Below are positions 570-61,517 of a stretch of 64,000 nucleotides of DNA, piece after piece. Numbering within the stretch: position 1 is the stretch's first letter; every line of letters starts with the position of its first letter. The DNA lies in the NCBI RefSeq assembly GCF_001577755.1, contig NZ_CP010776.1:1550001-1614000 (forward strand), in the 5' to 3' direction. The notes under the pieces are model-generated. The model saw nothing but the letters and a program-made list of their open reading frames with translations, did no database searches and was not told the origin of the DNA. Source of the DNA: Rufibacter sp. DG15C. Its GTDB lineage: Bacteria > Bacteroidota > Bacteroidia > Cytophagales > Hymenobacteraceae. The position numbers and the translations under genes were made by a program.

Positions 570-606
570 CGTTTTTGGCGTAATTTCTAAGAAACAGGCC
601 AAAACG
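570..606. repeat. dispersed palindrome copy 1
   Basis: 37 bp, arms CGTTTTTGGC / GGCCAAAACG, core in the reverse orientation. It lies between the convergent cls end and the thioesterase gene end. Confidence 0.8.
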
Positions 607-618
607 GTTGTGGATAAC

Positions 619-1194
619 TTATAGGGTGAATGCCATTTGGCAGCGTTGTCCGTCTAAGGTAGGGAGGTGTTGCTGTAGCTCTAGATGCGTCTTAATCTCT
701 TTGAACTCCTGCTCTGAGCGGGCCTTTATTTCCTTGCGTTGCAAGGCCTCAATGAAACGGCGCGCGTCTTCAGGGGTTTCTAAGGTAAGGCCGGGCACCA
801 GGGCGGGTTTGTCGTCTTCGCCTTTGGCCACCATGGTAAAGTAAGAGGTGTTGGTGTGCTTGACAGAACCGCTCTTCACATTCTCAGCAATTACCTTGAT
901 GCCCACCAGCAAAGAAGTTCTTCCTACATAATTCACTGAGGCCATTAAACTCACTAGTTCACCTACCTCTACAGGCTGCAGAAAATGCACGCCGTCTACC
1001 GTCACCGTCACGCAGTAATTACCCGCGTGCTTGGCCGCGCAGGCATAGGCTACTTTATCCATCAAGGACAGCAGGATGCCGCCGTGAATCTTCCCCCCGA
1101 AGTTGGCATAGCTGGGAATCATCAGCTCGGTGAGCGTGGTGCGCGAGTGGGAGACAGGTTTGAAGAAGTCTTGGTCTGGGCTAGAAGTGGGCAT
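619..1194 (-). CDS. acyl-CoA thioesterase, hotdog fold
   Basis: 191 residues resembling YciA/ACOT-type acyl-CoA thioesterases, which hydrolyse acyl-CoA to free acid and CoA in the cytoplasm. The hotdog signature is visible: LTELMIPSYANFGGKIHGG, then LLSLMDKVAYACAAKHAG, with the conserved Asp in LMDK. A second stretch, VGRTSLLVGIKV, matches the central strand. The C-terminal about 55 residues (after about residue 137) are charged and less typical. The start is directly preceded by a copy of the palindrome, so the upstream untranslated region is that repeat. Substrate cannot be told from sequence. Confidence 0.85.
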   Translation of the reverse strand: MPTSSPDQDFFKPVSHSRTTLTELMIPSYANFGGKIHGGILLSLMDKVAYACAAKHAGNYCVTVTVDGVHFLQPVEVGELVSLMASVNYVGRTSLLVGIKVIAENVKSGSVKHTNTSYFTMVAKGEDDKPALVPGLTLETPEDARRFIEALQRKEIKARSEQEFKEIKTHLELQQHLPTLDGQRCQMAFTL

Positions 1195-1196
1195 TT

Positions 1197-1234
1197 CGGT
1201 TTTGAGCTGTTTTCCTAAAAGTAAGGCAAAAACG
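1197..1234. repeat. dispersed palindrome copy 2
   Basis: 38 bp, CGGTTTTGAGC / GGCAAAAACG. It ends 2 bp from the thioesterase start codon and 10 bp after the stop of the DUF1003 gene, so it fills the gap between the two minus-strand genes. Confidence 0.75.
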
Positions 1235-1244
1235 GGAAATGTCG

Positions 1245-1994
1245 CTAGACGTTATTCCGGAGACGGGCGTTGATTTCATTGAGCAGCTCTACCTGTATCT
1301 GCTGTATCTGGAACATTCTATGGCCTTGCTGCATGAGCAGGTGGTCAATTTTCTCATGAAGTTGGCGTATCTCCAGTTCGGCTTTCAGGTTGATCTGGAA
1401 GTCATGCTCGGCGCGCAGGCGATCCTTCTCCTCCTGGCGGTTCTGGCTCATCATGATGACGGGCGCTTGCAAGGCCGCAATGGAAGAGAGGATGAGGTTG
1501 AGCAAGATGAATGGGAAGGGATCAAACGGCTGGCCTAGAAAATGGACGACGTTAATGACCATCCAAATGATCAGAAAAGCCAGAAAGCTGAGGATAAACC
1601 GCCAGCTGCCCCCAAAATCGGCTATTTTATCTGAGATGCGCTCGCCAAAGGTGAGTTGTTCTGTATATTCTGTCTCTGTGTTTTTGGAGAGGAGCTCATT
1701 CTGCGAGATACTGCTCACCACCTCTTGCTCCAGTTCGGTGAGGTGGCCAAACTCCTCTTGCAGCAAAGATTCTACAAAGGCGGTTCTGTACTTGTTGAGC
1801 TCATCCAGCGAGATGTAGCCAGATTGGTCCCACTGTGGGTGGTCCTTGAGGATGAGTTCTACCAGTGGTTCGCGCACGGTGTTGGCGGGCATCAACTGGC
1901 TTAGCGGCAAGAGCTTGCCTGTGATCTGGCAAGTCTCCACTACCGGAAGGTCTTTCAGCGTAGACATGGGCGTTTGGCTTAAGGTGATGTTCAA
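1245..1994 (-). CDS. DUF1003 domain membrane protein
   Basis: 249 residues. The N-terminal 100 residues are soluble, with a short motif TCQITGKLLPLSQL containing one Cys. Two membrane segments follow at about residues 131-151 and 160-182, joined by the short loop LGQPFDPFP that is typical of DUF1003. The C-terminal 65 residues are Glu/Gln/Arg-rich and look like a coiled coil. No enzymatic motif is visible and the family function is not established. Met10 is an alternative start. The neighbouring thioesterase follows on the same strand but a palindrome copy separates the two. Confidence 0.85.
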   Translation of the reverse strand: MNITLSQTPMSTLKDLPVVETCQITGKLLPLSQLMPANTVREPLVELILKDHPQWDQSGYISLDELNKYRTAFVESLLQEEFGHLTELEQEVVSSISQNELLSKNTETEYTEQLTFGERISDKIADFGGSWRFILSFLAFLIIWMVINVVHFLGQPFDPFPFILLNLILSSIAALQAPVIMMSQNRQEEKDRLRAEHDFQINLKAELEIRQLHEKIDHLLMQQGHRMFQIQQIQVELLNEINARLRNNV

Positions 1995-2048
1995 AGGATC
2001 CTGCCTCTAAACTTCAATTAAGTACGCACTTACGCTGGTGAAAGGTAA

Positions 2049-2375
2049 CTACAAGAACACCACGTCGTCAATCACCGACTCGCCCACTTCGGCGTTGATG
2101 AGGGTGAGGACTTTGGCTTTGGCCATGTTGAGTTCGTGCTTGAGTGGGGCAGAGGTGAGGCGCACAAACAGCTTGCGATTGCGCACAAAGACTTCCTGTG
2201 TCTTCATGGAGATGGCCCTGCCCATGATCTTCTCCCAGGAGGCCACCAACTGCACTTCGCTCAGTTTGCCGTTGAGTTTGTACGCCCGGAGCATGGCCTC
2301 AATGCTGTCTTTCAAAGAGATGGTATCTGCTTTGCGCATGAAAGGGCTTCTGGGGTTCAACGGGCGTAATGACAT
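2049..2375 (-). CDS. DUF721 (DciA-like) protein
   Basis: 108 residues matching the DUF721 family, small basic proteins that include DciA, the loader or partner of replicative helicase in bacteria lacking DnaC. The typical pattern is visible: LKDSIEAMLRAYKLNGKLSEV, then VASWEKIMG, then VRLTSAPLKHELNMAK, ending with a hydrophobic strand. It sits downstream of recF on the same strand, a neighbourhood often seen for this family and in line with a role in DNA replication or repair. Met13 is an alternative start. The DciA role is inferred from family membership only. Confidence 0.85.
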   Translation of the reverse strand: MSLRPLNPRSPFMRKADTISLKDSIEAMLRAYKLNGKLSEVQLVASWEKIMGRAISMKTQEVFVRNRKLFVRLTSAPLKHELNMAKAKVLTLINAEVGESVIDDVVFL

Positions 2376-2504
2376 AGTTTTTGCGGGTAAGGATGCTGGG
2401 TTCTGGACTGCTAAGGTAGCCGTTTAAACCGCCCCTAAATCCTTTTACGGCAGATGAATTTATCCACCCGGTTATCCCCAGAAATACGCTAAGTTCTGCA
2501 CCTT

Positions 2505-2542
2505 CGTTTTTGCCCTGATTCTCAGAAAGTAAGGCAAAAACG
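2505..2542. repeat. dispersed palindrome copy 3
   Basis: 38 bp, CGTTTTTGCCC / GGCAAAAACG with core CTGATT..GTAAGG. It lies 12 bp beyond the stop of the acetyltransferase gene. Confidence 0.8.
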
Positions 2543-2554
2543 ACATTTGGAGTT

Positions 2555-3109
2555 TTACGAATGTTCCTCGGCCACAATCCTCTGGTAGTCACTTCTAGTG
2601 AGTTTCCAGCGGTTGACCTCCTGTTCAAAGTTGAGCGAGCCGGGTATGGTGACATAGCGTTTCTCAAACGTGAAGCCTACTTTCTCTAGCGTCTTGTTGG
2701 GAGCCACGTTGAGCGCATAGGGCTCGCAGTAAATCTCTTGCAGTTGCAGGTTCTCAAAAAAGAAAGGCAGCGATTTCTTAACCAGCTCCGTGCCCATGCC
2801 TTGTTGCCGGGTCTCAGACTGCCACAGGTGCAAATGCATGTACGCACTCTGCCCGAACTGAATGTTGTTCACATTGCAGTGGCCCACGGGTTTGCCGTCT
2901 ACCAGCCAGATCAACGCGTACGCCATCTTCTCTGTGAGTGGCAATTTTAGTTGGTGGGTAAGCATCTGGGTAAGCCCTTCGCGAGAGGGGAGTTTTTGCA
3001 AATCCACGCCCATGCTCACCAGAAAGTCTGGGTCAGACTTCAGCCAATAGTCCGCGATGAGGGGAATGTCATCTGCCTGCAGTTCTCTTACTTCTAAAGA
3101 TGCATCCAT
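2555..3109 (-). CDS. GNAT family N-acetyltransferase
   Basis: 184 residues from the start chosen here (MDASLEVREL). A longer frame to 3211 exists, but its extra 34 residues translate the palindrome copy at 3140-3177 and should not be taken as protein. The product looks like a RimJ/RimL-type GNAT: LEVRELQADDIPLIADYW at the N-terminus, QGMGTELVKKSLPFFFE with the acetyl-CoA binding Q/RxxGxG/A motif, and APNKTLEKVGFTFEKRY near the end. It would acetylate an amine using acetyl-CoA. The substrate is unknown. Confidence 0.85.
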   Translation of the reverse strand: MDASLEVRELQADDIPLIADYWLKSDPDFLVSMGVDLQKLPSREGLTQMLTHQLKLPLTEKMAYALIWLVDGKPVGHCNVNNIQFGQSAYMHLHLWQSETRQQGMGTELVKKSLPFFFENLQLQEIYCEPYALNVAPNKTLEKVGFTFEKRYVTIPGSLNFEQEVNRWKLTRSDYQRIVAEEHS

Positions 3110-3139
3110 GGGAGTGGGGATTTTAGAATTCAAGGTAAC

Positions 3140-3177
3140 CGTTTTTAGCCTGTTTTCCAGAAAGTAAGCCAAAAACG
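3140..3177. repeat. dispersed palindrome copy 4
   Basis: 38 bp, CGTTTTTAGCC / AGCCAAAAACG, forward core. It lies between the gene at 3187 and the acetyltransferase, and creates a false N-terminal extension of the latter. Confidence 0.85.
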
Positions 3178-3186
3178 ATAAAATGG

Positions 3187-3663
3187 TTATGTTAGGTATT
3201 CCCCATCCCATGGTTCTTGAAAAGAGATAGTAGAGCTGGGTTGTAAATCAATGGAGCCAGTTTCTGAATCAGGGATCAGCCCAAAAATCACACCATCAAT
3301 CTTCACACTGAAAGGTTTCACTTCAATATCTGTGTATTCTACCTGACCAAGCTCTCGCACCATTTCTTCTAGTACGGTATAAGTATCTACCTCCTGCAAA
3401 TCAGCGGTTATTCCCGTAAACTTTGACTTGGTTTCTACATGGTTGCCCGCTTTATCAAACAGATGAAGAATAGCATACTCTCTCCGGTATTTTGCCCAAT
3501 CCTCATTTTTAAAACTGCCAAAAGGTTGCGAGAAATAGAAGGTCTCATACGCCCAGAATAGTTTTCCATGGCTGGTTTTGCCCAAGAAGTGCGTATGGTA
3601 ATCCTCCATTCTATTGATTGGAAGCTTCTTCGGGAATTTAGATTTTCTAAACCAGGAGAACAT
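3187..3663 (-). CDS. unrecognised small protein
   Basis: 158 residues, predicted cytoplasmic: no signal peptide or membrane segment. The N-terminus is basic (MFSWFRKSKFPKKLP) and the rest is mixed charged with aromatic clusters (FWAYETFYFSQPFGSF). It begins 16 bp after the recF stop on the same strand and so is probably cotranscribed with recF. I see no known catalytic motif. The overall look, a compact acidic protein ending in PWDGEYLT, would suit an immunity-like or small adaptor protein, but that is a guess and no function is claimed. Confidence 0.7.
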   Translation of the reverse strand: MFSWFRKSKFPKKLPINRMEDYHTHFLGKTSHGKLFWAYETFYFSQPFGSFKNEDWAKYRREYAILHLFDKAGNHVETKSKFTGITADLQEVDTYTVLEEMVRELGQVEYTDIEVKPFSVKIDGVIFGLIPDSETGSIDLQPSSTISFQEPWDGEYLT

Positions 3664-3679
3664 AAGCGTTTGTTTTCAG

Positions 3680-4798
3680 TTAGATATCCTCATCCTCAAT
3701 GGTCTCTGCTTTTCCCTCAGAGATTCTGAACCGTCTAATGTTGTTGGAAAGCGGTTGCAGAATCTTGTCTGTTCTATCCAAGTGCGTGTCTGTCAGGAAA
3801 ATCTGCCCGAAGGTATTGTTGGCAACCAGTTGCATGAGGTGCGTGATACGCTTTTCGTCTAGGCGGTCAAAGATGTCATCTAATAACAGCAAGGGTTTGT
3901 TGTCATTTTTCTGGGCTAGGACCTCAAACTGGGCCAGCTTAAGGGCAATGACGTAGCTTTTCTGCTGGCCTTGGGAGCCGTAGTTCTTCACGCTCTTATC
4001 CGCCATCAAGAATACAAAATCGTCTTTGTGCGGGCCCACGGTGGTACGTTGCAAAAGCAAATCCTTTCGCTGGCTTTGGTCCAAAAGGTAGGCGTAGTTC
4101 TGCCGAATGAGTTGGCTCTGGTAGCCCAGCGTGACCAGCTCAGAGGAGCCGGACAAGTGCTGGTAATGCCGCTGGAACACCGGTTCAAAGGTCTCTAGGA
4201 AGGCGGCGCGGCGTATGCTTAACTCGGTGCCTAGCGGCATCAACTGCTCATCCAGAATCTGCAGGTACTCCCGGTCTATGTAATTCTTCTCCGCGAACTG
4301 CTTTAACAAAGAGTTGCGCTGCTTGAGGACGTAGTTGTATTGAATGAGCAGGTCTAGGTAGGAATGGTCCAGCTGCGCCATGAGGGAATCAAAGAATTTG
4401 CGCCGGTCTTCGCTTCCTTCCCTAATCAAATCTGTATCATACGGCGAAATCAAGACCACCGGAAACTGGCCCACGTGCTCACTCACGCGCTCATAGGGCG
4501 TTTTGTTGAGCGTGATGATTTTCTTCTGACCGGCTTTCAAATAGCACTGTACGGCGCTCACTTTGTCATTGCTCACAAAACGGCCGCGCACTATAAAGTA
4601 GTCTTCTCCGTCCTTGATGTTCTGCAGGTCGGTGCCCGTAAAGGCGCTTTTGGTGAGGGACAGGTAATGGATGGCATCCAGCAGGTTGGTCTTGCCGCTG
4701 CCGTTGTCACCTATAAAGCAGTTGATGTGCGTGGAAAAGGGTAGCGTGGCTTCCTCGTAGTTCTTAAAGTGGAGCAGGTGTAGATTTTCGAGGACCAT
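3680..4798 (-). CDS. recF: DNA replication and repair protein RecF
   Basis: 372 residues, the usual length for RecF, an SMC-like ATPase that helps load RecA at single-strand gaps. The Walker A motif GDNGSGKT is at residues 30-37, the ABC-type signature GSQGQQKS is around residue 275, and the Walker B motif LLLLDDIFDRLD is around 303-315, followed by the D-loop. The N-terminus LHLLHFKNYEEATLPF is typical. It is followed on the same strand by the unknown gene at 3187, the acetyltransferase and DUF721. Confidence 0.97.
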   Translation of the reverse strand: MVLENLHLLHFKNYEEATLPFSTHINCFIGDNGSGKTNLLDAIHYLSLTKSAFTGTDLQNIKDGEDYFIVRGRFVSNDKVSAVQCYLKAGQKKIITLNKTPYERVSEHVGQFPVVLISPYDTDLIREGSEDRRKFFDSLMAQLDHSYLDLLIQYNYVLKQRNSLLKQFAEKNYIDREYLQILDEQLMPLGTELSIRRAAFLETFEPVFQRHYQHLSGSSELVTLGYQSQLIRQNYAYLLDQSQRKDLLLQRTTVGPHKDDFVFLMADKSVKNYGSQGQQKSYVIALKLAQFEVLAQKNDNKPLLLLDDIFDRLDEKRITHLMQLVANNTFGQIFLTDTHLDRTDKILQPLSNNIRRFRISEGKAETIEDEDI

Positions 4799-4934
4799 TA
4801 ATTTGTTTCCGGTATTTTTCTTAATTTCGCATGTTTAACACCTGTCGGAACATAGCCTGTAGCAGATCTTTAGAGAAAAACTACTAATACGTTCTGGCCC
4901 CTGACTTAACTAGTACGCACAACAGACATAAAGT

Positions 4935-5972
4935 ATGGCGGAGACGAAAGACGCGAAAGCGAAGAAAGCAAAGGTAAACGCTGCCCCTGCATTTTCAAAA
5001 GAGACCTACATGCGCTGGTATGAGATGATGCAACTCATGCGCAAATTTGAGGAAAAAGCCGGCCAATTGTATGGTCAGCAGAAAATCAAAGGTTTCTGTC
5101 ACTTATACATCGGTCAGGAGGCTTGCGCTGCCGGTGCCATCACCGCGCTTACCAAAGATGACAAATGGATCACCGCCTACCGTGACCACGCGCATCCGCT
5201 GGGGTTGGGAACGTCGCCAAACGCTGTTATGGCTGAGTTGTACGCCAAGGCCACGGGTTGCTCTAAGGGGAAAGGTGGATCTATGCACATCTTTGACAAA
5301 GAGGTAAACTTTGTAGGCGGTCACGGGATTGTAGGTGCGCAAGTGCCTATGGGGGCTGGTCTGGCCTTCGCAGAGAAATACAACAAGACGGGCAATCTGT
5401 GCATCACCTATATGGGGGATGGTGCCGTGCGCCAAGGTGCGTTGCACGAGGCCTTTAACATGGCCATGCTGTGGAAACTGCCGGTTATCTTTGTGGTAGA
5501 AAACAACGGCTACGCCATGGGTACTTCTGTGGAGCGCACGTCTAACGTAACTGATCTTTATAAACTAGGTCTGGCCTATGACATGCCCTCAGAGCCGGTA
5601 AACGCCATGCGCTGCGAAGACGTGCATGAGGCCGTAGCCCGTGCCGCTGAGCGTGCCCGTGCTGGTGAGGGTCCAACCTTCCTGGAGTTTAGAACCTACC
5701 GTTACAAAGGTCACTCCATGTCTGACCCGGCTAAGTACCGCACCAAAGAAGAATTGGAGAGCTATCGTAATCAAGATCCAATTGAGAGCGTTCGTTTTAC
5801 TATCTTGGAGAACAAATTTGCCACAGAGCAGGAGTTGGAAGAGATAGACAACAAGATCAAAGGGCAGGTGCAGGAGTCAGTGGAGTTTGCTGAGAACTCG
5901 CCGTATCCAGATCCAAAAGAGTTGTACACAGACATTTACGTAGAGGCTGACTATCCTTACCTAATGGACTAA
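4935..5972 (+). CDS. pdhA: pyruvate dehydrogenase E1 component, alpha subunit
   Basis: 345 residues, a thiamine-diphosphate-dependent E1 alpha subunit that decarboxylates pyruvate for the pyruvate dehydrogenase complex. The ThDP motif runs from GDG at residues 161-163 to ENN at 189-191. The phosphorylation-loop-type sequence YRYKGHSMSDPAKYR follows near residue 257. The N-terminal 15 residues are Lys/Ala-rich. No beta subunit is adjacent, so the complex is encoded elsewhere or in split loci. A branched-chain E1 alpha is less likely given the GHSMSDPAKYR match. Confidence 0.93.
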   Translation: MAETKDAKAKKAKVNAAPAFSKETYMRWYEMMQLMRKFEEKAGQLYGQQKIKGFCHLYIGQEACAAGAITALTKDDKWITAYRDHAHPLGLGTSPNAVMAELYAKATGCSKGKGGSMHIFDKEVNFVGGHGIVGAQVPMGAGLAFAEKYNKTGNLCITYMGDGAVRQGALHEAFNMAMLWKLPVIFVVENNGYAMGTSVERTSNVTDLYKLGLAYDMPSEPVNAMRCEDVHEAVARAAERARAGEGPTFLEFRTYRYKGHSMSDPAKYRTKEELESYRNQDPIESVRFTILENKFATEQELEEIDNKIKGQVQESVEFAENSPYPDPKELYTDIYVEADYPYLMD

Positions 5973-6068: not shown

Positions 6069-6779
6069 ATGTCAAATAACACAATGAAGCAAGAAAGCGA
6101 ATTCGAGCTAGTGGAAAACCCAGATGCCCTGGCGAATCGCCTTGTAGGCGGGTCCGAAGATTTTGTGAACCGTCACAAGAACTTGCTGATTGGAATTTTT
6201 GTGGCTATTGCCGCCGCCGTGGTAGGTGGGTTCCTGTACTACCAGAACCAGCAAACCAAAAACCAAGAGGCGCTGGCTGCCATGTTCCAGGCAGAGTATT
6301 ACCTAGAGTCTGACTCTCTGGCCAAAGCCATCAACGGTGACGGTCAGTATGACGGTTTCAAGAAAGTGGCAGATGAGTACGGAAGCACCAAAGCCGGTAA
6401 CCTGGCCAACTTCTACGCGGGTGTAGCCCTCTTGAAGGACGGTAAGTTTCAAGACGCCCTGAACTACCTAGAGAACTTCAAGTCTGATGATTTGTTGCTA
6501 CAGGCCCGCGCCTACAGCCTGCAAGGTGACGCCAACCTGGAACTTGGTAAGAAGGAAGAAGCTGCTGAACTGTACAAGAAAGCCGCCGATCACAAAGCCA
6601 ATGAGTTCTTCACGCCGCAGTATTTGATGAAAGCTGGTGTGGCGCTTGAGTCTGCCAACAAATACTCAGAGGCCGCTGAGGTGTACAACCGCATCATCAC
6701 AGACTACCCTAGTGCCCCAGAAGTAAACGATGCCAAGAAATACAAAGCCCGCAACGAGGCTTTGGCTACTAGCAAATAA
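6069..6779 (+). CDS. membrane-anchored tetratricopeptide repeat protein (YfgM-like)
   Basis: 236 residues from MSNNTMKQES; an upstream start at 6015 is open but lies in what looks like the leader. A single membrane segment at about residues 38-58 follows a short acidic N-terminus, giving a type II topology with the C-terminal TPR domain in the periplasm. Repeats such as NLANFYAGVALLKDGKFQDA and LKAGVALESANKYSEAAEVY are clear. The architecture resembles YfgM/DUF2133, an ancillary SecYEG factor. It precedes ribH, a pairing common in Bacteroidota. A strong terminator follows the stop. Confidence 0.85.
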   Translation: MSNNTMKQESEFELVENPDALANRLVGGSEDFVNRHKNLLIGIFVAIAAAVVGGFLYYQNQQTKNQEALAAMFQAEYYLESDSLAKAINGDGQYDGFKKVADEYGSTKAGNLANFYAGVALLKDGKFQDALNYLENFKSDDLLLQARAYSLQGDANLELGKKEEAAELYKKAADHKANEFFTPQYLMKAGVALESANKYSEAAEVYNRIITDYPSAPEVNDAKKYKARNEALATSK

Positions 6780-6864: not shown

Positions 6865-6902
6865 CGTTTTTGGCCTTATTTCCAGAAAACAAGCCGAAAA
6901 CG
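6865..6902. repeat. dispersed palindrome copy 5
   Basis: 38 bp, CGTTTTTGGCC / AGCCGAAAACG, reverse core. It lies 18 bp after the terminator and 46 bp before ribH. Confidence 0.85.
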
Positions 6903-7491: not shown

Positions 7492-7508
7492 CATGGTTTA
7501 CAGAGGTT

Positions 7509-7545
7509 CGTTTTAGCCTATTTTCCAAGAATCAGGTTAAAAACG
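7509..7545. repeat. dispersed palindrome copy 6
   Basis: 37 bp, CGTTTTAGCC / GGTTAAAAACG, reverse core; the right arm carries G-to-T style decay. It sits between the two convergent gene ends, beside the terminator. Confidence 0.75.
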
Positions 7546-13652: not shown

Positions 13653-13690
13653 CGTTTTTGGCCTGTTTTCCAGGAAATAGGCCAAAAACG
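13653..13690. repeat. dispersed palindrome copy 7
   Basis: 38 bp close to consensus, arms CGTTTTTGGCC / GGCCAAAAACG. The palindrome extends 5 bp further each side (AATGC..GCATT) and is followed by TTTTTT, so this copy also looks like a terminator for the PorP/SprF gene. Confidence 0.92.
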
Positions 13691-14055: not shown

Positions 14056-14093
14056 CGTTTTTAGGGTATTATGGAGAAAACAGGCCAAAAACG
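14056..14093. repeat. dispersed palindrome copy 8
   Basis: 38 bp, CGTTTTTAGGG / GGCCAAAAACG, reverse core with a decayed left arm. It stands alone in the intergenic region. Confidence 0.8.
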
Positions 14094-19992: not shown

Positions 19993-21267
19993 ATGGATTC
20001 AGACATACCCTACATACTTCTTAGCCTGGGAGCAATCCTGCTATTATTATTAGCCACTAGTGAAGTGGCCTTGCGGCACCTCAATCCAGTGGTGGCCAAA
20101 TTAGAGGCAACCGAACAAAAAAGCCTGATCGGGTTCCTCCTTCGCCGCGAATCTCAAGTCTTTCTTACCATCCAACTGGGCCTGGGCATTGGCCTGCTTC
20201 TGTTTGCCGCGGGGCTATATGAGGTAGTCTATACGCTGCTCCTGGATAAAACCGCGCTCATGCACAGCCTGGTCATGGTATTGGCCGCCGGCAGTACGTT
20301 TCTAGTAAGCTGGCTGCTTTTTTTAAGCGTGGGCATGATGGCCTCTTTGGCGACCAGCGGTAAAATCATCAGGATTCTGTCTGGCCCCTTGACCTTGGTG
20401 TGGGTGCTTCTTTATCCTTTTACTGCTGCGGTGAACGTTGTTTTTGGCCTGTTTTCTGGAAAAGACACCAAAAACGAAGAGGAGCTGCTGACCAATGCGC
20501 TGGCGTTTGAGCCTTTCGCTACCAAGCTACCCACCCCAGAGGAGTCTACCCTGGCCTTATTAGCCACCGAAGAGGTGGACAGCAAAATTTTCCACAATGC
20601 CTTGGAGTTCAAGAACGTGAAGGTGCGTGAGTGCATGGTGCCCCGCACCGAGATTGACGCCCTTGAGCTAGAAGCTGGCGTTGACGCCCTGCGTGAAGCC
20701 TTCATTGAAACCGGCCACTCCAAAATCCTCATCTACCAAGATTCTCTGGATCATATTCTGGGCTACTGCCACCAGTTCAGTCTGTTTGACCAACCCAAGA
20801 GCCTGCAAGACATCCTTATGCCCATGGAGGCGGTGCCGGAGACCATGCTGGCGCGCGAGTTATTTGTCAAGTTCATTACAGACCACCGCAGCATTGTGTT
20901 GGTGGTGGACGAGTTTGGCGGCACGTCTGGCATTGTAACCTTAGAGGACGTGATGGAGGAGATCTTTGGCGATATCAACGATGAGTATGACGAGGAGGAC
21001 CTGCTGGAGCAGACCTTGCCAGAGCCCAACACCTACCTGTTCTCGGCGCGCCAGGAGATTGACTACCTCAATGAGGAATATGCCTTGAACCTGCCAGAGG
21101 GAGACTATGAAACCTTGGGCGGGTTTATTTTATCTGTGCTGGAAGAAATCCCCTCTACCGGAGACATAATCACGGTCTTACCCTTTGAAATACGCATTCT
21201 GTCCATGGATGAGCACCGCATCAACACCGTGCACCTGTCTGTCAAGAATCCCTACCCAGAAGAATAA
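19993..21267 (+). CDS. gldE: GldE-like CNNM/CBS domain membrane protein (HlyC/CorC family)
   Basis: 424 residues. A DUF21/CNNM membrane domain covers about residues 5-150 with four hydrophobic segments. A linker follows, then a CBS pair (about 205-330, with VRECMVPRTEI and LVVDEFGGTSGIVTLEDVMEEIFGDI) and a C-terminal CorC_HlyC domain to the end. GldE is an accessory gliding and secretion protein in flavobacteria, and other members of the family move divalent cations. The linker at residues 149-161 is encoded by an in-frame copy of the dispersed palindrome (VFGLFSGKDTKN). The gldE name is by homology and context only. Confidence 0.85.
   Translation: MDSDIPYILLSLGAILLLLLATSEVALRHLNPVVAKLEATEQKSLIGFLLRRESQVFLTIQLGLGIGLLLFAAGLYEVVYTLLLDKTALMHSLVMVLAAGSTFLVSWLLFLSVGMMASLATSGKIIRILSGPLTLVWVLLYPFTAAVNVVFGLFSGKDTKNEEELLTNALAFEPFATKLPTPEESTLALLATEEVDSKIFHNALEFKNVKVRECMVPRTEIDALELEAGVDALREAFIETGHSKILIYQDSLDHILGYCHQFSLFDQPKSLQDILMPMEAVPETMLARELFVKFITDHRSIVLVVDEFGGTSGIVTLEDVMEEIFGDINDEYDEEDLLEQTLPEPNTYLFSARQEIDYLNEEYALNLPEGDYETLGGFILSVLEEIPSTGDIITVLPFEIRILSMDEHRINTVHLSVKNPYPEE
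20439..20476. repeat. dispersed palindrome copy 9, inside the gldE-like coding region
   Basis: 38 bp aligned with the family. The left 24 bases (from GTTTTTGGCC through GGAAAA) match the consensus exactly, and the right end CAAAAACG is kept. The usual TAGGCC is GACACC here, which removes an in-frame TAG. It encodes the linker between membrane and CBS domains. Confidence 0.8.
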
Positions 21268-21349: not shown

Positions 21350-23455
21350 ATGGCATTAATTAACAAGATTCGGGAGAAGTCAGGCTTCGCTATTGGTGCG
21401 ATTGCTGTGGGCTTACTTTTTTTCATTGTGTTGGGAGACTTGCTGGGACCTAATTCCCGGTTGTTCAATGACAAAATGGTAGTGGGGGAGATTGCCGGGC
21501 ATGAGGTGCCTGTGCAAGACTTTGAGCTCATGGTGGAGGAAGCCAAGAACAACTACGCACAGCAGTACGGTCGTCAGCCCGGTGAAGCCGAAATGGCACA
21601 ATTGCGTGAGCAGACCTGGAACCAGCTGGTATTCAAATACGCCTTTGAAGAGGAGTTTGAGAAACTGGGCTTAGGAGTTTCTGATGATGAGCTGTATGAC
21701 ATGGTGCAGGGCAAGAACATCCACCCTGCCATCAGACAGATGTTCACAGACCAGCAGACGGGACAGTTTGATATAAACAGAGTTCGCCAGACGTTGCAAA
21801 ACCTAAAGACCATGGACCCTGCCCAGCGCGAGTCTTGGTACAAGTACGAGGCAGAACTGGCCACAGACCGCCTTCGTAACAAATACTACAACCTGTTCAC
21901 GCTGTCTAACTACGTGACCACCGAAGAAGTGAAGCGCTACAACGCAGAGCAGAACAGCCGCGCAGCCATGAAATACCTGTTCATCCCGTATTTCACCATC
22001 TCTGATTCTGCCGTGAAGGTAACGGACAACCAGTTGCAGGACTACCTGGACAAGAACAAGAAGAAGTTTGAAGTAGAAGAAGGACGTTCTATCTCTTACG
22101 TGACCATTCCAGTGTCTGCCTCTAGAGAAGACAGCACCGAGTACCAGAAAGAGACCTCTGAGCTAGCCGCTGAATTCAGCAAGACCCAGAACGACTCCCT
22201 TTTTGTGAAAGCCGAGTCTGACACGCCTTACAACGGTGCGTTTGTATCTGTGAGCGAGTTGCCAGAAGCGTTGAGAACCCAGACTCTAGAGCAAGGTAAA
22301 CTGTACGGTCCTTTCATGGAGAACGGCACGTTCAGCTTGATCAAAGTAACCGGTGTGAAAGACGGTGGTACGCCTTCTGCCCGCGCCAGCCACATCTTGA
22401 TCAAACCAGAAAACACTACCCCAGAGGCCAAGGCCGCTGCTAAGACAAAAGCCCAGGACATCTACAACCAAATCAAAGGCGGTGCTGACTTTGCCATGAT
22501 GGCGGCCAAGCACGGTACTGACGGAACAGCCTCACAAGGCGGTGACCTAGGTTGGTTTACCCAAGGCCGCATGGTGCCAGCGTTTGAGAAAGCAGTATTT
22601 GGTGCCTCTTCTGCCGGATTGTTGCCTAACTTGGTAGAGACTGAATATGGTTTCCACATTGTGAAAGTAACGGCACCTAAAACCAGCAAGTCGTACCAAT
22701 TGGCGCAGGTGACCCGCACCATCACGCCAAGCGATGCCTCTAGAGAAGACGCCTTCAGAAGAGCCAGCATCTTGGCCTCTGAGAGCAAAAATGCAGATGA
22801 GTTTGAGAAAGCCATCGCCAAAGAAAAAGGCCTGGTAAAAGCTGAAGCCAAGAACATCACCGCCGCTGACCGTGGCGTAAACAACTTGCAGAACGCCCGT
22901 GAACTGGTGCGTTGGGCTTTTGACAAAGAAACCGAAGTTGGAAAAGTTTCTCCGGTCATGACCTTGGACGACCAGTACGTAGTAGCCGTGTTAACCGGCA
23001 AGCGTGAAAAAGGAACCGCCAAAGTAGCTGATGTGAAAGACGAGTTGACCGCCGCCGTGCGCAATGAGTTAAAGGCAAAGCAAATCCAGGAGAAATTGGG
23101 TAAAATCACAGGCACCTTGGAGCAAGCCGCCGCTAAATATGGTCCAAATGCCATCGTTCGTTCAGTGACGGATGTAACGCTTGCTACGGCCAACGCGCAA
23201 GGATTGGGCTTTGAGCCGGTGGCTGTGGGCAACGCCTTCGGGTTGAAGCCAGGACAGCGCACGCAGCCTATCCAAGGCGAAGCCGGTGTAGTGGTGATGG
23301 AAATGACCAGCGTGACGCCAGCCCCTCCGGTAACGGACGTAAACACCTTCAAGCAGCAACTAGCCGGTCAGCGTGCCGGCCGTGTGCAAGGTGCTATCTA
23401 TGAGGCCGTTAAGAAAAACGCCAACGTAGAAGACAACCGCGTACGTTTCTTTTAA
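21350..23455 (+). CDS. ppiD: PpiD/SurA-like periplasmic peptidyl-prolyl isomerase
   Basis: 701 residues. One membrane anchor at about 12-32 places the rest in the periplasm. A SurA_N-type chaperone region follows (GEIAGHEVPVQDFELMVEEAK..), then a parvulin domain from about 346 (ASHILIKPENTTPEAK, GGDLGWFTQGRMVPAFEKAVF, TEYGFHIVKV), and a degenerate second parvulin-like part toward the C-terminus. It helps outer-membrane proteins fold at the Sec exit. It closes the coaX-lptC-gldE cluster and is followed by a strong terminator. Confidence 0.93.
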   Translation: MALINKIREKSGFAIGAIAVGLLFFIVLGDLLGPNSRLFNDKMVVGEIAGHEVPVQDFELMVEEAKNNYAQQYGRQPGEAEMAQLREQTWNQLVFKYAFEEEFEKLGLGVSDDELYDMVQGKNIHPAIRQMFTDQQTGQFDINRVRQTLQNLKTMDPAQRESWYKYEAELATDRLRNKYYNLFTLSNYVTTEEVKRYNAEQNSRAAMKYLFIPYFTISDSAVKVTDNQLQDYLDKNKKKFEVEEGRSISYVTIPVSASREDSTEYQKETSELAAEFSKTQNDSLFVKAESDTPYNGAFVSVSELPEALRTQTLEQGKLYGPFMENGTFSLIKVTGVKDGGTPSARASHILIKPENTTPEAKAAAKTKAQDIYNQIKGGADFAMMAAKHGTDGTASQGGDLGWFTQGRMVPAFEKAVFGASSAGLLPNLVETEYGFHIVKVTAPKTSKSYQLAQVTRTITPSDASREDAFRRASILASESKNADEFEKAIAKEKGLVKAEAKNITAADRGVNNLQNARELVRWAFDKETEVGKVSPVMTLDDQYVVAVLTGKREKGTAKVADVKDELTAAVRNELKAKQIQEKLGKITGTLEQAAAKYGPNAIVRSVTDVTLATANAQGLGFEPVAVGNAFGLKPGQRTQPIQGEAGVVVMEMTSVTPAPPVTDVNTFKQQLAGQRAGRVQGAIYEAVKKNANVEDNRVRFF

Positions 23456-23523: not shown

Positions 23524-23561
23524 CGTTTTCGGCCTGATTTCTGGAAAATAGGCCGAAAACG
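23524..23561. repeat. dispersed palindrome copy 10 (compensatory variant)
   Basis: 38 bp, arms CGTTTTCGGCC / GGCCGAAAACG: position 7 changed in both arms, keeping the pairing. Flanks ATAG / CTAT extend the stem by 4 bp. Confidence 0.92.
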
Positions 23562-25522: not shown

Positions 25523-25560
25523 CGTTTTAGGGCTAATTCTCAGGAAATAGGCCAAAAACG
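25523..25560. repeat. dispersed palindrome copy 11
   Basis: 38 bp, CGTTTTAGGGC / GGCCAAAAACG. It starts 9 bp after the TPR gene stop, between convergent genes. Confidence 0.8.
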
Positions 25561-26071: not shown

Positions 26072-26109
26072 TGGTTTTGGCGCGTTTTCCAGAAAAGAGG
26101 TCAAGAACG
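26072..26109. repeat. dispersed palindrome copy 12 (degenerate)
   Basis: 38-bp frame with several mismatches in both arms (TGGTTTTGGC / GGTCAAGAACG) and core GTTTTCCAGAAAA kept. It lies between two minus-strand genes. Confidence 0.5.
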
Positions 26110-28077: not shown

Positions 28078-28115
28078 CGCTTTTAGCCTGTTTTATAGGA
28101 ATCAAACCAAAAACG
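28078..28115. repeat. dispersed palindrome copy 13
   Basis: 38 bp, CGCTTTTAGCC / AACCAAAAACG, forward core, starting 7 bp after the recJ stop. Confidence 0.78.
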
Positions 28116-31974: not shown

Positions 31975-32012
31975 CGTTTTCGGGCTAATTCCCGGAAAAC
32001 AAGCCAAAAACG
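31975..32012. repeat. dispersed palindrome copy 14
   Basis: 38 bp, CGTTTTCGGGC / AGCCAAAAACG, reverse core. It starts 2 bp after the peptidase stop and shares its last CG with the terminator stem. Confidence 0.85.
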
Positions 32013-32043
32013 CCCAGCTACATTCAAGTAGCTGGGCGTTTTA
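32011..32043. terminator. bidirectional terminator between the S9 peptidase and GH25 genes
   Basis: 11-bp stem CGCCCAGCTAC / GTAGCTGGGCG with a 6-nt loop. TTTTA follows on the plus strand. On the minus strand the T run is supplied by the right arm of palindrome copy 14. Confidence 0.88.
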
Positions 32044-32096
32044 GTTAGAATTAATATGCTTGGGTTGGGATTTGTCTTTAATAATGGTGCTTTTCT

Positions 32097-32134
32097 CGTT
32101 TTCAGCCTGTTTCTCAGGAAATAGCCTTAAAACG
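32097..32134. repeat. dispersed palindrome copy 15, overlapping the GH25 gene end
   Basis: 38 bp, CGTTTTCAGCC / CCTTAAAACG, forward core. Its right arm supplies the TAA stop and the last residue of the GH25 protein. Confidence 0.82.
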
Positions 32135-32891
32135 CAGGCTCGGCCTGGGCTATGGCAGTGGAAGCAGTAGTCGTAGTTGCCTTTACCGGGGCAGGCAGGC
32201 AGTGCGCGTTGAGGGCGTTGATGTCGCCGTAGAACCAGTTCACGTCTACGGGGGTGTTGATGCCTTTCACGGTGCCTTTCTCTGAGTACTGCCAGAACGC
32301 CATCTGGTCACTGGGGTGGGTAGAGGGTTCCTCGTTCTTGTAGCGGGCAATCCAGAACTTGTAGCCGGCGAAGTGGCCGCGCAGTTTCTTGTCGTAGAAG
32401 CCCTGGTAGGTGTAGATGATGGGCTTGATGCCGTAATGGGCCTCAATGCCTACCAACCAGCGCTTGATGTCAGCGCGCATCTGCACATCAGAAATGTCTT
32501 TGGCGTAGGTCTCCAGGTCCAAGACCGGGGCTAAATCGCCTGGTTGTAAATCAACGGTGCTTTTAAATAATTCTAACTGACTGTCTACGTCTACCCAAGG
32601 CAGGTAGAAATGGTAGGCACCACGTTTGATGCCGTGTTTGCGGCTTGACTCCCAGTTGCGCTTAAAGTATGGGTCCTTCAGAAAATTACCTTCGGTGGCT
32701 TTCATGAACGCGAAGGCAATGTTAGACTCCTTTACGTGCTCCCAATTCACCTCTGCCTGGTACCTGGACACGTCAATGCCGTGCAGAAAGCTGGAGGAGT
32801 TGGTATTGGCTCCCATCAAAGTGATACTACCTGCTAATAAGACAGAAGCAGTAAGGGTTTTCCAACCAGCCGTAGTAAAAAATGAAGCCAT
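32127..32891 (-). CDS. glycoside hydrolase family 25 lysozyme
   Basis: 254 residues with an N-terminal signal or membrane segment (WKTLTASVLLAGSITLMGA). GH25 muramidases cleave between MurNAc and GlcNAc in peptidoglycan. Family motifs: HGIDVSRYQAEVNWEHVK (catalytic-site Asp), FAFMKATEGNFLKDPYF (Glu), and APVLDLETYAKD with the acidic pair, then PIIYTYQGFYDKKL. The C-terminal 20 residues are Thr/Ala-rich and the stop lies inside a palindrome copy. A role in cell-wall turnover is inferred. Confidence 0.93.
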   Translation of the reverse strand: MASFFTTAGWKTLTASVLLAGSITLMGANTNSSSFLHGIDVSRYQAEVNWEHVKESNIAFAFMKATEGNFLKDPYFKRNWESSRKHGIKRGAYHFYLPWVDVDSQLELFKSTVDLQPGDLAPVLDLETYAKDISDVQMRADIKRWLVGIEAHYGIKPIIYTYQGFYDKKLRGHFAGYKFWIARYKNEEPSTHPSDQMAFWQYSEKGTVKGINTPVDVNWFYGDINALNAHCLPAPVKATTTTASTAIAQAEPAF

Positions 32892-35889: not shown

Positions 35890-36319
35890 GCCATCCGTTT
35901 TTGGCCTGTCTTCTGGAAAGGAGGCCAAAAACCATAAGTCTATTTGAGTAGACGAAAGACTGGTCTGGAGTGTAAAGCAGATGCTGCCACCTAAACGCTG
36001 ATAAACCACCGGCGCCTATCTTTTTATACTGGCAGAATTAGCTTTCAAAAAATAATTGGATAGAAACACTATCCTTCTTGCATTTTAAGAGTATACGTTC
36101 TTAAGTTCTATCCTTAAAAGCTGGTAGAGGTCCCTCTACACCATGCTGTAAGAATAAAGTAAACGAGTAGCTTATACATCTTCCAAGCAACCCCAGCGGT
36201 TCTCCGGTAATCTCCCTCTTTAATATCCCCATTTCTTAAGACGCACTATTTATGCCCGTGTGGGTTTAAGCTTGGCTGCGTCTGTTTGCTGTATTCTCTC
36301 ACTCTAATCAAAAATAGCC
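35890..36319. other. 430-bp intergenic region before cytochrome c gene
   Basis: It holds palindrome copy 16 at its left end. The remaining 380 bp contains short AT-rich stretches but no gene, RNA or clear promoter that I can support. Confidence 0.55.
35896..35933. repeat. dispersed palindrome copy 16
   Basis: 38 bp, CGTTTTTGGCC / GGCCAAAAACC, forward core with CTTCTGGAAAGG; the final G is changed. Confidence 0.85.
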
Positions 36320-36948: not shown

Positions 36949-36986
36949 CGTTTTTGGCCTGTTTTCAAGAATATAGGTTAAAAAAG
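36949..36986. repeat. dispersed palindrome copy 17
   Basis: 38 bp, CGTTTTTGGCC intact on the left; the right arm has decayed to GGTTAAAAAAG. It starts 14 bp after the cytochrome stop. Confidence 0.8.
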
Positions 36987-38343: not shown

Positions 38344-38381
38344 CGTTTTTGGCCTGCTTTCTGAAAAGCAGGCCAAAAACG
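38344..38381. repeat. dispersed palindrome copy 18 (perfect palindrome variant)
   Basis: 38 bp, arms CGTTTTTGGCC / GGCCAAAAACG. The core CTGCTTTC / GAAAAGCAG has the compensatory TGC..GCA pair, and the flanks GAAGC / GCTTC extend the stem by 5 bp. Confidence 0.93.
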
Positions 38382-41160: not shown

Positions 41161-41198
41161 CGTTTTTGGCCTATTCCCTGAGAAACAAGCCAAAAACG
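41161..41198. repeat. dispersed palindrome copy 19
   Basis: 38 bp, CGTTTTTGGCC / AGCCAAAAACG, reverse core. It fills the gap between two convergent genes. Confidence 0.85.
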
Positions 41199-43026: not shown

Positions 43027-43064
43027 CGTTTTTAGCCTGTTTTGTGAGAAACACGCCAAAAATG
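43027..43064. repeat. dispersed palindrome copy 20
   Basis: 38 bp, CGTTTTTAGCC / CGCCAAAAATG. It starts 9 bp after the dehydrogenase-like stop and 10 bp before a terminator. Confidence 0.78.
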
Positions 43065-49780: not shown

Positions 49781-49818
49781 CGTTTTTAGGCTATTTTCTG
49801 GAAAATAGGCCAAAAACG
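49781..49818. repeat. dispersed palindrome copy 21
   Basis: 38 bp, CGTTTTTAGGC / GGCCAAAAACG with a fully symmetric core TATTTTCTGGAAAATA. It starts 2 bp after the flippase stop. Confidence 0.9.
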
Positions 49819-53516: not shown

Positions 53517-53549
53517 GAAAGGCCCGCGCAAGCGGGCCTTTCTGTTTTT
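53517..53549 (+). terminator. intrinsic terminator after the AraC gene, T run inside palindrome
   Basis: 11-bp stem GAAAGGCCCGC / GCGGGCCTTTC with loop GCAA. The T run TGTTTTT is the 5' arm of palindrome copy 22. Confidence 0.9.
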
Positions 53550-53580
53550 AGGCTGTTTTCTGGAAATCAGGCCAAAAACG
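53543..53580. repeat. dispersed palindrome copy 22
   Basis: 38 bp, TGTTTTTAGGC / GGCCAAAAACG, forward core. It overlaps the AraC terminator tail. Confidence 0.88.
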
Positions 53581-54138: not shown

Positions 54139-54176
54139 CGTTTTCGGCCTGTTTTCTGAAAAACAAGCCAAAAACG
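54139..54176. repeat. dispersed palindrome copy 23
   Basis: 38 bp, CGTTTTCGGCC / AGCCAAAAACG, symmetric core GTTTTCTGAAAAAC. It forms a false N-terminal extension of the STAS-like gene. Confidence 0.88.
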
Positions 54177-56981: not shown

Positions 56982-57018
56982 CGTTTTTGTGCTAATTCTC
57001 AGAAAACAGACCAAAACG
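56982..57018. repeat. dispersed palindrome copy 24
   Basis: 37 bp, CGTTTTTGTGC / AGACCAAAACG, reverse core, decayed. It lies between divergent genes. Confidence 0.7.
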
Positions 57019-57054
57019 GAAGAGCCTCTAGCCACCATGCCGCTAAAAACCACG

Positions 57055-58169: not shown

Positions 58170-58173
58170 GGGG

Positions 58174-59719: not shown

Positions 59720-59758
59720 CGTTTTTGGCATCTTTTCCAGAAACCAGCCTAAAAAACG
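59720..59758. repeat. dispersed palindrome copy 25
   Basis: 39 bp, CGTTTTTGGCA / AGCCTAAAAAACG, one extra A in the right arm. Confidence 0.72.
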
Positions 59759-61063: not shown

Positions 61064-61067
61064 AAGG

Positions 61068-61105
61068 CGTTTTTGGCTTGTTATCTGGGAATTAGGCTGA
61101 AAATG
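61068..61105. repeat. dispersed palindrome copy 26
   Basis: 38 bp, CGTTTTTGGCT / AGGCTGAAAATG, forward core. It lies 4 bp after the DACNV stop and 1 bp before a terminator. Confidence 0.78.
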
Positions 61106-61106
61106 G

Positions 61107-61142
61107 AACATCCCACGGTGTATAAATGCCGTGGGATGTTTC
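61107..61142. terminator. intrinsic terminator between DACNV gene and lipoprotein gene
   Basis: 12-bp perfect stem AACATCCCACGG / CCGTGGGATGTT, loop 10 nt, symmetric; serves both converging genes. Confidence 0.85.
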
Positions 61143-61163
61143 TGTAGTATAAAACCCTAAGTA

Positions 61164-61364
61164 TTAGTTACCAGCGCCCAGCGTCAAGGTGTCTGAGGTG
61201 ATGGAAACGTCTTTGGTAGTGTCTGCCACTGTCTTAGTGGTATCTGTAGTAACAGTAGTAGTGTCGGTGGTGGTGGTTTCTGCGGTCTCTGCCTCAGCGC
61301 CTTTTTTCATATCTGAGCAAGACATAAAGGAAAGAAGCGCTACAACGGTTAATAATTTTTTCAT
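61164..61364 (-). CDS. small Thr-rich lipoprotein
   Basis: 66 residues. A lipoprotein signal ends LLSFMSC with Cys16, and the mature part is largely Thr, Asp and Ala (TTTTDTTTVTTDTTKTVADTTKD). It is typical of small surface or periplasmic spacer lipoproteins of Bacteroidota with no assigned function. The gene is flanked by the terminator above and palindrome copy 27. Confidence 0.75.
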   Translation of the reverse strand: MKKLLTVVALLSFMSCSDMKKGAEAETAETTTTDTTTVTTDTTKTVADTTKDVSITSDTLTLGAGN

Positions 61365-61479
61365 AAGGGTATAGTGGATAAGGTTTTAAGATATAATATG
61401 GGCTGAAGGTATTGACTTACTATCATATATGCAATTTCCTATACTTTGGAATGGCTTGGAAGAAAGACGAAGGATAATC

Positions 61480-61517
61480 TGATTTTGGCCTCTTTTCGGC
61501 AAAACAGACCAAAAACA
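61480..61517. repeat. dispersed palindrome copy 27 (degenerate)
   Basis: 38-bp frame TGATTTTGGCC / AGACCAAAAACA with core TTTTCGGCAAAA. Its right arm supplies the T run of the tRNA-Phe terminator on the minus strand. Confidence 0.65.

What the first reader, a model, noticed from the sequence alone, without database searches (positions are those of the whole stretch)
570..61517. A dense family of about 38-bp palindromes spread through intergenic DNA
Seen: 27 recognisable copies in 64 kb (about one per 2.4 kb), nearly all 37-39 bp, with arms CGTTTTTGGCC and GGCCAAAAACG around a near-symmetric core such as TGTTTTCTGGAAAATA. Most start 2-15 bp after a stop codon. The T run is inside the 5' arm and the A run inside the 3' arm, the opposite of a usual intrinsic terminator, so most copies are not terminators by themselves. 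Many copies in the forward orientation would give a G-U pair in RNA where DNA would mismatch, which favours an RNA hairpin. This resembles REP or Rickettsia-palindrome type elements, but I know no named family with this sequence.
Basis: partly seen in the sequence, partly recalled or inferred. Interest (0 to 1): 0.88.

Follow-up and report, generated by a model that had tools for sequence, protein, structure and literature searches.

The report
Palindromic boundary marks between Rufibacter genes
Rufibacter chromosomes carry roughly 1,700 copies of a 38-base symmetric DNA mark, usually one at a boundary between neighbouring transcription units; the copies behave like docking sites for an unknown protein and not like RNA hairpins or mobile repeats, and some species have rewritten theirs in a dialect of their own.

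Summary
The palindromes are real: 27 copies of 38 bp in the window, an estimated 1,661-1,759 in the genome. The genus is Rufibacter; all 16 held species carry them, other sampled genera at most a few strays. The RNA-hairpin and REP readings fail. Oriented by transcription, G-T and A-C mismatches are equal (120 v 121). The arms vary nearly independently in 16 species. There is no REP tag and no Y1 transposase match in this genome. Isolated half-sites are rare. Sites occupy 46 of 56 convergent gaps, 83 of 126 tandem gaps of 120 bp or more, and 23 of 49 long divergent gaps, usually one per gap. Positions are conserved across the genus, while the sequence follows a species dialect. One site lies inside a gene, in frame in 16 of 16 species and missing from 13 of 13 outgroup orthologues. 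Best explanation: a double-stranded operator for an unidentified, co-evolving DNA-binding protein that marks or insulates transcription units, sometimes combined with a terminator. The protein and its function are inferred, not shown.

The parts
570..607 (.). 38-bp palindromic site, convergent gap, 11 bp from both stop codons
1197..1234 (.). site, tandem (-) gap, 10 bp after a stop
2505..2542 (.). site, tandem (-) gap, 12 bp after a stop
3140..3177 (.). site, tandem (-) gap
6865..6902 (.). site 85 bp after the stop of the gene ending at 6779; present in 14 of 14 orthologues, 83-89 bp after the stop
7508..7545 (.). site, convergent gap, 23 bp from the nearer stop
13653..13690 (.). site at the tip of an extended hairpin (AATGC/GCATT flanks) with a T run: terminator-embedded copy
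14056..14093 (.). site, tandem gap
20439..20476 (.). site inside the CorC/CBS-domain gene 19993-21267; same reading phase in 16 of 16 Rufibacter species, missing from 13 of 13 outgroup orthologues
23524..23561 (.). site 68 bp after the stop of the gene 21350-23455; present in 15 of 15 orthologues, 52-74 bp after the stop
25523..25560 (.). site, convergent gap, 9 bp after a stop
26072..26109 (.). site, divergent gap by my gene calls
28078..28115 (.). site, 7 bp after a stop
31975..32012 (.). site, 2 bp after the stop of 29048-31972; present in 14 of 14 orthologues; first of two in this convergent gap
32097..32134 (.). site overlapping by 8 bp the end of the gene 32127-32816 (-); a site lies -8 to +2 bp from the stop in 15 of 15 orthologues
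35896..35933 (.). site, 6 bp after a stop
36949..36986 (.). site, convergent gap
38344..38381 (.). site at the tip of an extended hairpin (6 flanking pairs), 29 bp after a stop
41161..41198 (.). site, convergent gap, 5 and 6 bp from both stops
43027..43064 (.). site, convergent gap, 9 bp after a stop
49781..49818 (.). site, tandem gap, 2 bp after a stop
53543..53580 (.). site, convergent gap, 18 bp from the nearer stop
54139..54176 (.). site, tandem (-) gap, 30 bp after a stop
56982..57019 (.). site between two divergent genes, 92 and 70 bp from the starts
59720..59757 (.). site, tandem gap, 41 bp after a stop
61068..61105 (.). site, convergent gap, 4 bp after a stop
61480..61517 (.). site 44 bp beyond the 3' end of the tRNA-Phe gene 61562-61636 (-)

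Best explanation
Each copy is a double-stranded, two-fold symmetric operator, half-site consensus Y-CGTTTTTGGCCTGTTTTCY in this genome. It would be bound by an unidentified sequence-specific DNA-binding protein of Rufibacter, as a dimer or pair of dimers touching two T-tracts one helical turn apart in each half. Usually one site stands at a transcription-unit boundary: between convergent genes, between tandem operons, and between divergent genes. There the bound protein would separate neighbouring units, by blocking read-through and/or the spread of supercoils; at about a fifth of sites it is combined with a longer, terminator-like hairpin. The recognition sequence drifts with the protein, so copies in one species share a dialect. 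Shown here: copy number, symmetry, absence of a strand bias, near-independence of the arms, positional conservation, constraint, dialects, usually one per gap, near-restriction to Rufibacter, scarcity on the one plasmid sampled. Inferred: that a protein reads it, which protein, and that the effect is insulation.
For: Discrete family (198 places at >=6 bits, 194 at >=25). Strand neutrality: 120 G-T v 121 A-C in 109 tandem copies. Arms independent: mirrored pairing 0.759 observed v 0.757 permuted, n=197; similar in 16 species. Isolated half-sites: 4 at >=16 bits against 197 full sites. T-tract positions 4-6 and 15-16 are 97-100% conserved here. Sister-species orthologues: site 0.82 identical, ungapped flanks 0.49-0.58, 57 pairs. 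Occupancy: 46/56 convergent gaps >=45 bp, 83/126 tandem gaps >=120 bp; among gaps of 45-120 bp 21/27 convergent but 13/64 tandem. Usually one per gap: in 94 gaps of 120-250 bp 35/57/2 have 0/1/2 sites v 49/32/10 by Poisson. Positions: of 18 genes with a site here and 11 or more orthologues, 14 have it in >=85% of them. Dialects: paralogue identity 0.743 (G012) and 0.716 (G005), orthologues to G000 0.679 and 0.618. In-gene site in 16/16 species, same phase, in none of 13 outgroup orthologues. R. tibetensis: 58 sites per 100 kb of chromosome v 2 per 95 kb of plasmid, same model and threshold.
Against: No binding protein was identified; HU/IHF-family counts are 1-2 per genome inside and outside the genus. 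A weak residual covariation remains in a scaffold-only test (Stouffer z 2.0 over 16 species, mainly G003 and G011), and in the weight-matrix test z reaches +2.5 (G003) and +2.1 (G001). Flanks pair more often than chance in 44 of 197 copies (8.7 expected), so hairpin formation matters for some. Of 160 gene ends with a site within 100 bp, 82 have a terminator-like structure with its tail beyond the site (10 of 66 in the shuffled control); some of these hairpins contain the site, others lie wholly beyond it, so the site is not always the terminator. 26 of 49 long divergent, 43 of 126 long tandem and 10 of 56 convergent gaps have none. Gaps under 45 bp (0 of 54 tandem) are too short to test. Four of the 18 genes keep the site in only 43-67% of orthologues. 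Long gaps quite often hold two (40 of 152 gaps of 400-700 bp over 16 species). Gene calls are my own, not a curated annotation.
Confidence: 0.55

Rival explanations
1. Self-DNA mark for natural transformation: a DNA-uptake-sequence analogue kept homogeneous by biased uptake and recombination (molecular drive).
For: High copy number, dialects, concerted change in place, near absence from one plasmid. Neisseriaceae DUS have dialects (PMC3630211, passages), are over-represented in core genomes and conserved within more permissive DNA (PMC2397512, passages).
Against: Isolated half-sites are rare, whereas transformation depends only on a single DUS (PMC2397512). Only 4 of 140 and 3 of 88 copies are inside genes. 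Usually one per gap and largely fixed positions across the genus are not what I would expect of drive.
Confidence: 0.13
2. RNA hairpin in 3' untranslated regions, acting in termination or mRNA stability.
For: Bias to stop codons: 59 of 109 tandem copies within 30 bp of the upstream stop, 7 within 30 bp of the next start. 44 of 197 have >=3 extra flanking pairs (8.7 expected), and 21 of 44 gene ends of such copies carry TTTT after the extended stem. Weak covariation in some species.
Against: No excess of G-T over A-C; pairing near the permuted level; double substitutions in sister-species orthologues 49 v 42.5 expected; in R. tibetensis only 52% of mirrored positions pair; 26 of 197 copies lie between divergent genes.
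Confidence: 0.1
3. REP/MITE-type mobile palindrome spread by an IS200-like (RAYT) transposase.
For: High-copy extragenic palindromes downstream of genes, as REPs are (PMC3733652, passages); Y1_Tnp matches exist in 12 of 12 other Rufibacter genomes in that search. Some gain or loss: 4 gene ends with a site only here and 4 only in G013.
Against: No Y1_Tnp match in this genome; GTAG or CGTC near only 12 and 8 of 197; positions largely conserved across the genus; position-specific constraint on the sequence.
Confidence: 0.06
4. Site of a chromosome-structuring machine (topoisomerase, condensin loader or nucleoid protein) whose purpose is global topology and not insulation of each unit.
For: Placement where supercoils of neighbouring units meet; chromosome more than plasmid in R. 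tibetensis. It differs from the best explanation only in purpose.
Against: Sites also lie between divergent genes. No candidate machine found.
Confidence: 0.16

Closest known systems
REP elements / REPINs with RAYT (TnpA-REP)
   Same: 20-50-nt palindromes, high copy, mostly intergenic, between convergent and tandem genes (PMC8266576, PMC3733652, passages)
   Different: No conserved tetranucleotide tag, no Y1_Tnp match in this genome, arms hardly covary, positions largely fixed across the genus, usually one per gap
DNA uptake sequences (Neisseriaceae DUS; Pasteurellaceae USS, recalled)
   Same: Very high copy number (2,245-5,918 for the dialects quoted), species dialects, core-genome rich, conserved within faster-evolving DNA, some built into terminators
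   Different: 38-bp obligate palindrome, rarely inside genes, usually one per gap, largely conserved positions
Operators of global regulators / nucleoid-associated proteins (recalled: IHF, MatP-matS, Noc)
   Same: Symmetric double-stranded site under sequence constraint
   Different: Far more sites than such site-specific systems (recalled), placed by transcription-unit boundary and not by regulon or chromosomal domain
Eukaryotic insulator and roadblock factors (recalled: CTCF, Reb1)
   Same: Sequence-specific marks at gene boundaries that can stop polymerase (recalled)
   Different: No relation claimed; a resemblance of logic only, untested

Membership tests
REP/RAYT | high-copy palindrome in intergenic DNA | tested here: met
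REP/RAYT | conserved GTAG or CGTC tag at one end | tested here: not met
   GTAG within 12 bp of 12 of 197, CGTC of 8 of 197
REP/RAYT | Y1/IS200-like transposase in the genome | tested here: not met
   PF01797: 0 matches at E<=0.001 in G000 (4 candidates scored), 1-6 in each of 12 other Rufibacter genomes; G013-G015 were not in that search
REP/RAYT | stem read as a folded single strand (base pairs kept) | tested here: not met
   mirrored pairing near the permuted level; weak residue z 2.0
REP/RAYT | dispersal to new places | tested here: not met
   positions largely conserved in 15 relatives; 4 single on each side against G013
DNA uptake sequence | very high copy number with a species dialect | tested here: met
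DNA uptake sequence | single copies suffice and are common, also inside genes | tested here: not met
   4 isolated half-sites at >=16 bits v 197 full sites; 4 of 140 inside genes
DNA uptake sequence | promotes uptake of self DNA | not testable with these tools
   needs a transformation assay
intrinsic terminator | stable hairpin directly followed by a T run | tested here: not met
   9 of 116 gene ends of unextended copies have TTTT within 10 nt; 21 of 44 of extended copies do, so a minority may qualify
known RNA family (Rfam 15) | match at the gathering score | tested here: not met
   only tRNA-Phe in the window
HU/IHF-type nucleoid site | genus-specific HU/IHF paralogue that could read it | tested here: inconclusive
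   PF00216 1-2 per genome in 25 genomes inside and outside the genus; binding itself not testable
two-fold symmetric protein operator | strand neutral, arms independent, position-specific constraint | tested here: met
   no protein shown

The most novel reading that the evidence does not exclude
Rufibacter carries a chromosome-wide insulator system: one protein, co-evolving with its site, occupies a 38-bp operator at most transcription-unit boundaries and keeps neighbouring units transcriptionally or topologically apart. A bacterial genus would thus have a general boundary factor, with dialect changes showing how a protein with about 1,700 sites can still change specificity.
Probability: 0.4. 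Interest if true: 0.95.

Novelty: categorically new. Interest (0 to 1): 0.86.

Why it matters
In the paper searches listed in the full report I found no bacterium described as marking most of its transcription-unit boundaries with one dedicated, sequence-specific double-stranded site. If the reading protein exists it would be a general boundary or insulator factor, testable by pull-down in a soil genus. The dialects make it a natural experiment in how a protein and some 1,700 sites change together: in the two more distant species compared, orthologous sites keep their places yet are hardly more alike than random pairs, even where the rewriting coincides with amino-acid changes. It is also a caution: an abundant palindrome downstream of genes need be neither an RNA hairpin nor a REP.

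Tried and rejected
RNA hairpin, REP/RAYT, known Rfam family and uptake sequence are treated above.

Looking for the reading protein: HU-HIG PF18291 (25 genomes) and HU PF00216 (25 genomes) gave 1-2 matches in every genome, inside and outside the genus, so no genus-specific paralogue. Sister genus g3 has 1-6 matches (both strands counted, so fewer places) in 8 genomes at E<=0.001. I hoped these were the operator of the protein's own gene (note), but genes around 10 fetched regions are unrelated to one another, and some sites lie near contig ends or beside transposases, so they look like imported segments.

A search for a different palindrome dialect in other genera found none. A weight matrix refined on G017 only drifted to A+T-rich sequence. 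Generic palindromes are more frequent than in shuffles in every genome tested, outgroups included, but the T-tract scaffold is at chance level outside the genus (0-2 hits in six outgroup stretches).

One search counted terminators without masking the T runs inside the sites and is superseded. One search stopped part-way with an error and was continued; its distance counts printed before the error are used. One search missed genes on the reverse strand and was redone. The genome-contig scan with P0001 returned one distant locus and no near names. The genus name rests on R. tibetensis plasmid DNA matching G008. The core-versus-accessory comparison is uninformative, because orthologues outside the fetched stretch count as missing.
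Full report
What is there. The window is bases 1,550,001-1,614,000 of a 4.14-Mb single-contig genome. In 464 kb of this genome (window plus 400 kb fetched) a symmetrised weight matrix finds 197 copies at >=12 bits, 198 at >=6 and 194 at >=25, with 0-1 in a shuffle, so there is no tail of decayed copies. Density varies from 0.29 to 0.46 per kb among three stretches and gives about 1,759 copies per genome; the 607 exact scaffold matches, 72 of which fall in the 464 kb with its 197 copies, give about 1,661. The stricter exact-arm pattern gives 158 forward and 161 reverse matches, largely the same places seen on both strands.

Taxonomy. A 2,403-bp piece of Rufibacter tibetensis plasmid NZ_CP012644.1 matches same-genus genome G008 contig C2 at 100% and at identical coordinates, so G008 is R. 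tibetensis and the window's genus is Rufibacter (Hymenobacteraceae). All 16 held genomes of the genus carry the family (0.38-0.75 copies per kb in stretches of 40-304 kb). In 150 genomes of the family, the 16 of this genus have 33-43 matches (43 is the scoring cap), 11 others have 1-6 and 123 none. The scaffold pattern has 607 matches here and 0-4 in each of 394 other genomes of the phylum, where the reversed control gives 0-5 (no other Rufibacter was in that draw).

It is not, in the main, a selected RNA hairpin. For 109 copies in tandem gaps, oriented by transcription, G-T mismatches number 120 and A-C mismatches 121; over eleven stretches from nine species the figures are 345 and 333. A transcript-level hairpin would tolerate the first and not the second. 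The arms vary nearly as if unconnected: mirrored pairing is 0.759 against 0.757 after permuting arms among copies (n=197). In the 16-species analysis z ranges from -2.3 to +2.5. In R. tibetensis only 52% of mirrored positions pair. In sister-species orthologues double substitutions number 49 against 42.5 expected. A test that selects copies by scaffold only and scores the nine free positions leaves a slight positive residue (Stouffer z 2.0 over 16 species, driven by G003 and G011). That could come from the minority of copies that are part of longer hairpins: 44 of 197 have >=3 contiguous flanking pairs against 8.7 expected, and 21 of 44 gene ends of such copies have TTTT just after the stem, against 9 of 116 for the rest. 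The inner dinucleotides of the arms are anti-correlated in this genome (GT/GT 26 seen, 41 expected), as a threshold on total binding strength would give.

It looks like a double-stranded operator. The half-site consensus here is CGTTTTTGGCCTGTTTTCY, with T at 97-100% in positions 4-6 and 15-16 and a pyrimidine (85%) just outside. The two T-tracts of a half lie 11 bp apart. Isolated half-sites are rare: 4 at >=16 bits in 464 kb (14 at >=12, where a shuffle gives 10), so both halves seem to be required.

Where it lies. By my own gene calls (a simple codon-usage caller, not a curated annotation), sites occupy 46 of 56 convergent gaps of >=45 bp, 83 of 126 tandem gaps of >=120 bp, and 23 of 49 divergent gaps of >=200 bp. 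In gaps of 45-120 bp they are in 21 of 27 convergent but only 13 of 64 tandem ones, many of which are probably inside operons. Gaps under 45 bp (0 of 54 tandem) are too short to be a test. In tandem gaps 59 of 109 are within 30 bp of the upstream stop and 7 within 30 bp of the next start. Of 26 copies between divergent genes, 9 have both starts 49-138 bp away. Number per gap is under-dispersed: among 94 gaps of 120-250 bp, 35, 57 and 2 have 0, 1 and 2 sites against 49, 32 and 10 by Poisson; over all 16 species 135, 203 and 8 of 346 against 184, 116 and 37. Long gaps hold two more often (40 of 152 gaps of 400-700 bp). Inside called genes lie 4 of 140 (304-kb stretch) and 3 of 88 (G013). Of 160 gene ends with a site within 100 bp, 82 have a terminator-like structure with its tail beyond the site, some containing the site and some not (10 of 66 in a shuffled control).

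Positions are old, sequences are rewritten. Downstream of orthologous genes, sites coincide more than chance in all 15 relatives: sister species G013 69 both, 4+4 single, 37 expected; G005 23 both, 0+3, 13 expected. Of 36 genes with 11 or more orthologues, 18 have a site here; 14 of these have one in >=85% of orthologues (for example 15/15, 14/14), the other four in 43-67%. Of the 18 without, 13 have it in at most one relative; the rest range up to 10 of 14. Orthologous copies in G000 and G013 are 0.82 identical where ungapped flanks are 0.49-0.58 (57 pairs) and random cross-species pairs 0.742, so near relatives still show locus memory. Further out the consensus differs: CGTTTTcGGgCTCATTTCc in G012 and CGTTTAGgGGCTcTTTTTc in G005. 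Paralogues within G012 and G005 are 0.743 and 0.716 identical, while their orthologues to G000 are 0.679 and 0.618 (25 and 23 pairs), hardly better than random cross-species pairs (0.667, 0.612). Half-site information is 21-26 bits in seven species and 13-17 bits in nine (17-140 copies each; small samples inflate it). G005, sharp, nests with the looser G002 and G011 (29-gene tree), so sharpening or loosening happened more than once.

The in-gene copy is telling. Site 20439-20476 lies inside a CorC/CBS-domain gene (PF03471, PF00571). It is present in the same reading phase in all 16 species. It is missing from 13 of 13 outgroup orthologues (best scores -10.2 to 11.4, the highest in G018, against 30.3-43.4 in the six Rufibacter genes scored alongside). 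Under six species models the copy scores best with its own model in G013, G012, G005 and G001, with the sister's model in G000, and not with its own in G006. In G012 and G005 the dialect coincides with amino-acid changes. DNA-level selection at that place is hard to avoid.

Chromosome more than plasmid. With one model and threshold, R. tibetensis has 58 sites in 100 kb of chromosome and 2 in 95.4 kb of plasmid; with its own model the chromosome has 60 (Fisher p 1.7e-15 for 60 v 2). The plasmid stretch is rich in polysaccharide-use genes, so this may reflect recent acquisition as much as replicon.

Mechanism. I think a sequence-specific protein binds these sites and separates neighbouring transcription units, as a roadblock to read-through and/or a barrier to supercoils. 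Steps shown: abundance, symmetry, strand neutrality, constraint, placement, dialects. Steps inferred: the protein, its occupancy, its effect. HU/IHF counts do not point to a candidate.

Known kinds. From passages read, not whole papers: REPs are palindromes of 20-50 nt preceded by a conserved tetranucleotide, usually GTAG, recognised as folded single strands by TnpA-REP (PMC8266576). They lie mostly between convergent and tandem genes, and some lie inside genes (PMC3733652; that paper takes GT pairs as a sign of transcription). These sites meet the placement but not the tag, transposase, folding or mobility features. [quoted passage not shown] These sites share the dialects but not the single-copy or in-gene habit. 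Paper searches found nothing on such sites in Rufibacter: 2 papers, unrelated by title and abstract start; 0; 0; 1, unrelated by the same listing. Wider searches showed no match by title or abstract start among 20 of 24, 15 of 324 and 12 of 74 papers listed. The library is open-access only, so this is weak evidence of absence.

Noticed in passing
G088, G096, G134, G110, G146, G022 (loci L142-L166): Sister genus g3 carries a few strong sites, some in pairs 70-86 bp apart, in unrelated contexts, some near contig ends or transposases; they look like imported Rufibacter-type segments.
   Followed up: partly
G000 whole genome: No Y1_Tnp (PF01797) match at E<=0.001 in this genome, although each of 12 other Rufibacter genomes in that search has 1-6; possible loss of the whole family here.
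   Followed up: no
L187, L188 (R. tibetensis plasmid NZ_CP012644.1): The two plasmid stretches, rich in SusC/SusD and glycoside-hydrolase genes, are almost free of the sites (2 in 95 kb).
   Followed up: yes
window 61480-61517 and 61562-61636: A site lies 44 bp beyond the 3' end of the tRNA-Phe gene, so RNA genes may be marked as well.
   Followed up: no
Rufibacter tree: Sharp consensus (21-26 bits per half) and loose consensus (13-17 bits) species are both common; G005 is sharp beside loose relatives. Why sharpness differs is unexplained.
   Followed up: partly
window 31975-32134: Two sites 122 bp apart share one convergent gap, an exception to one per gap.
   Followed up: no
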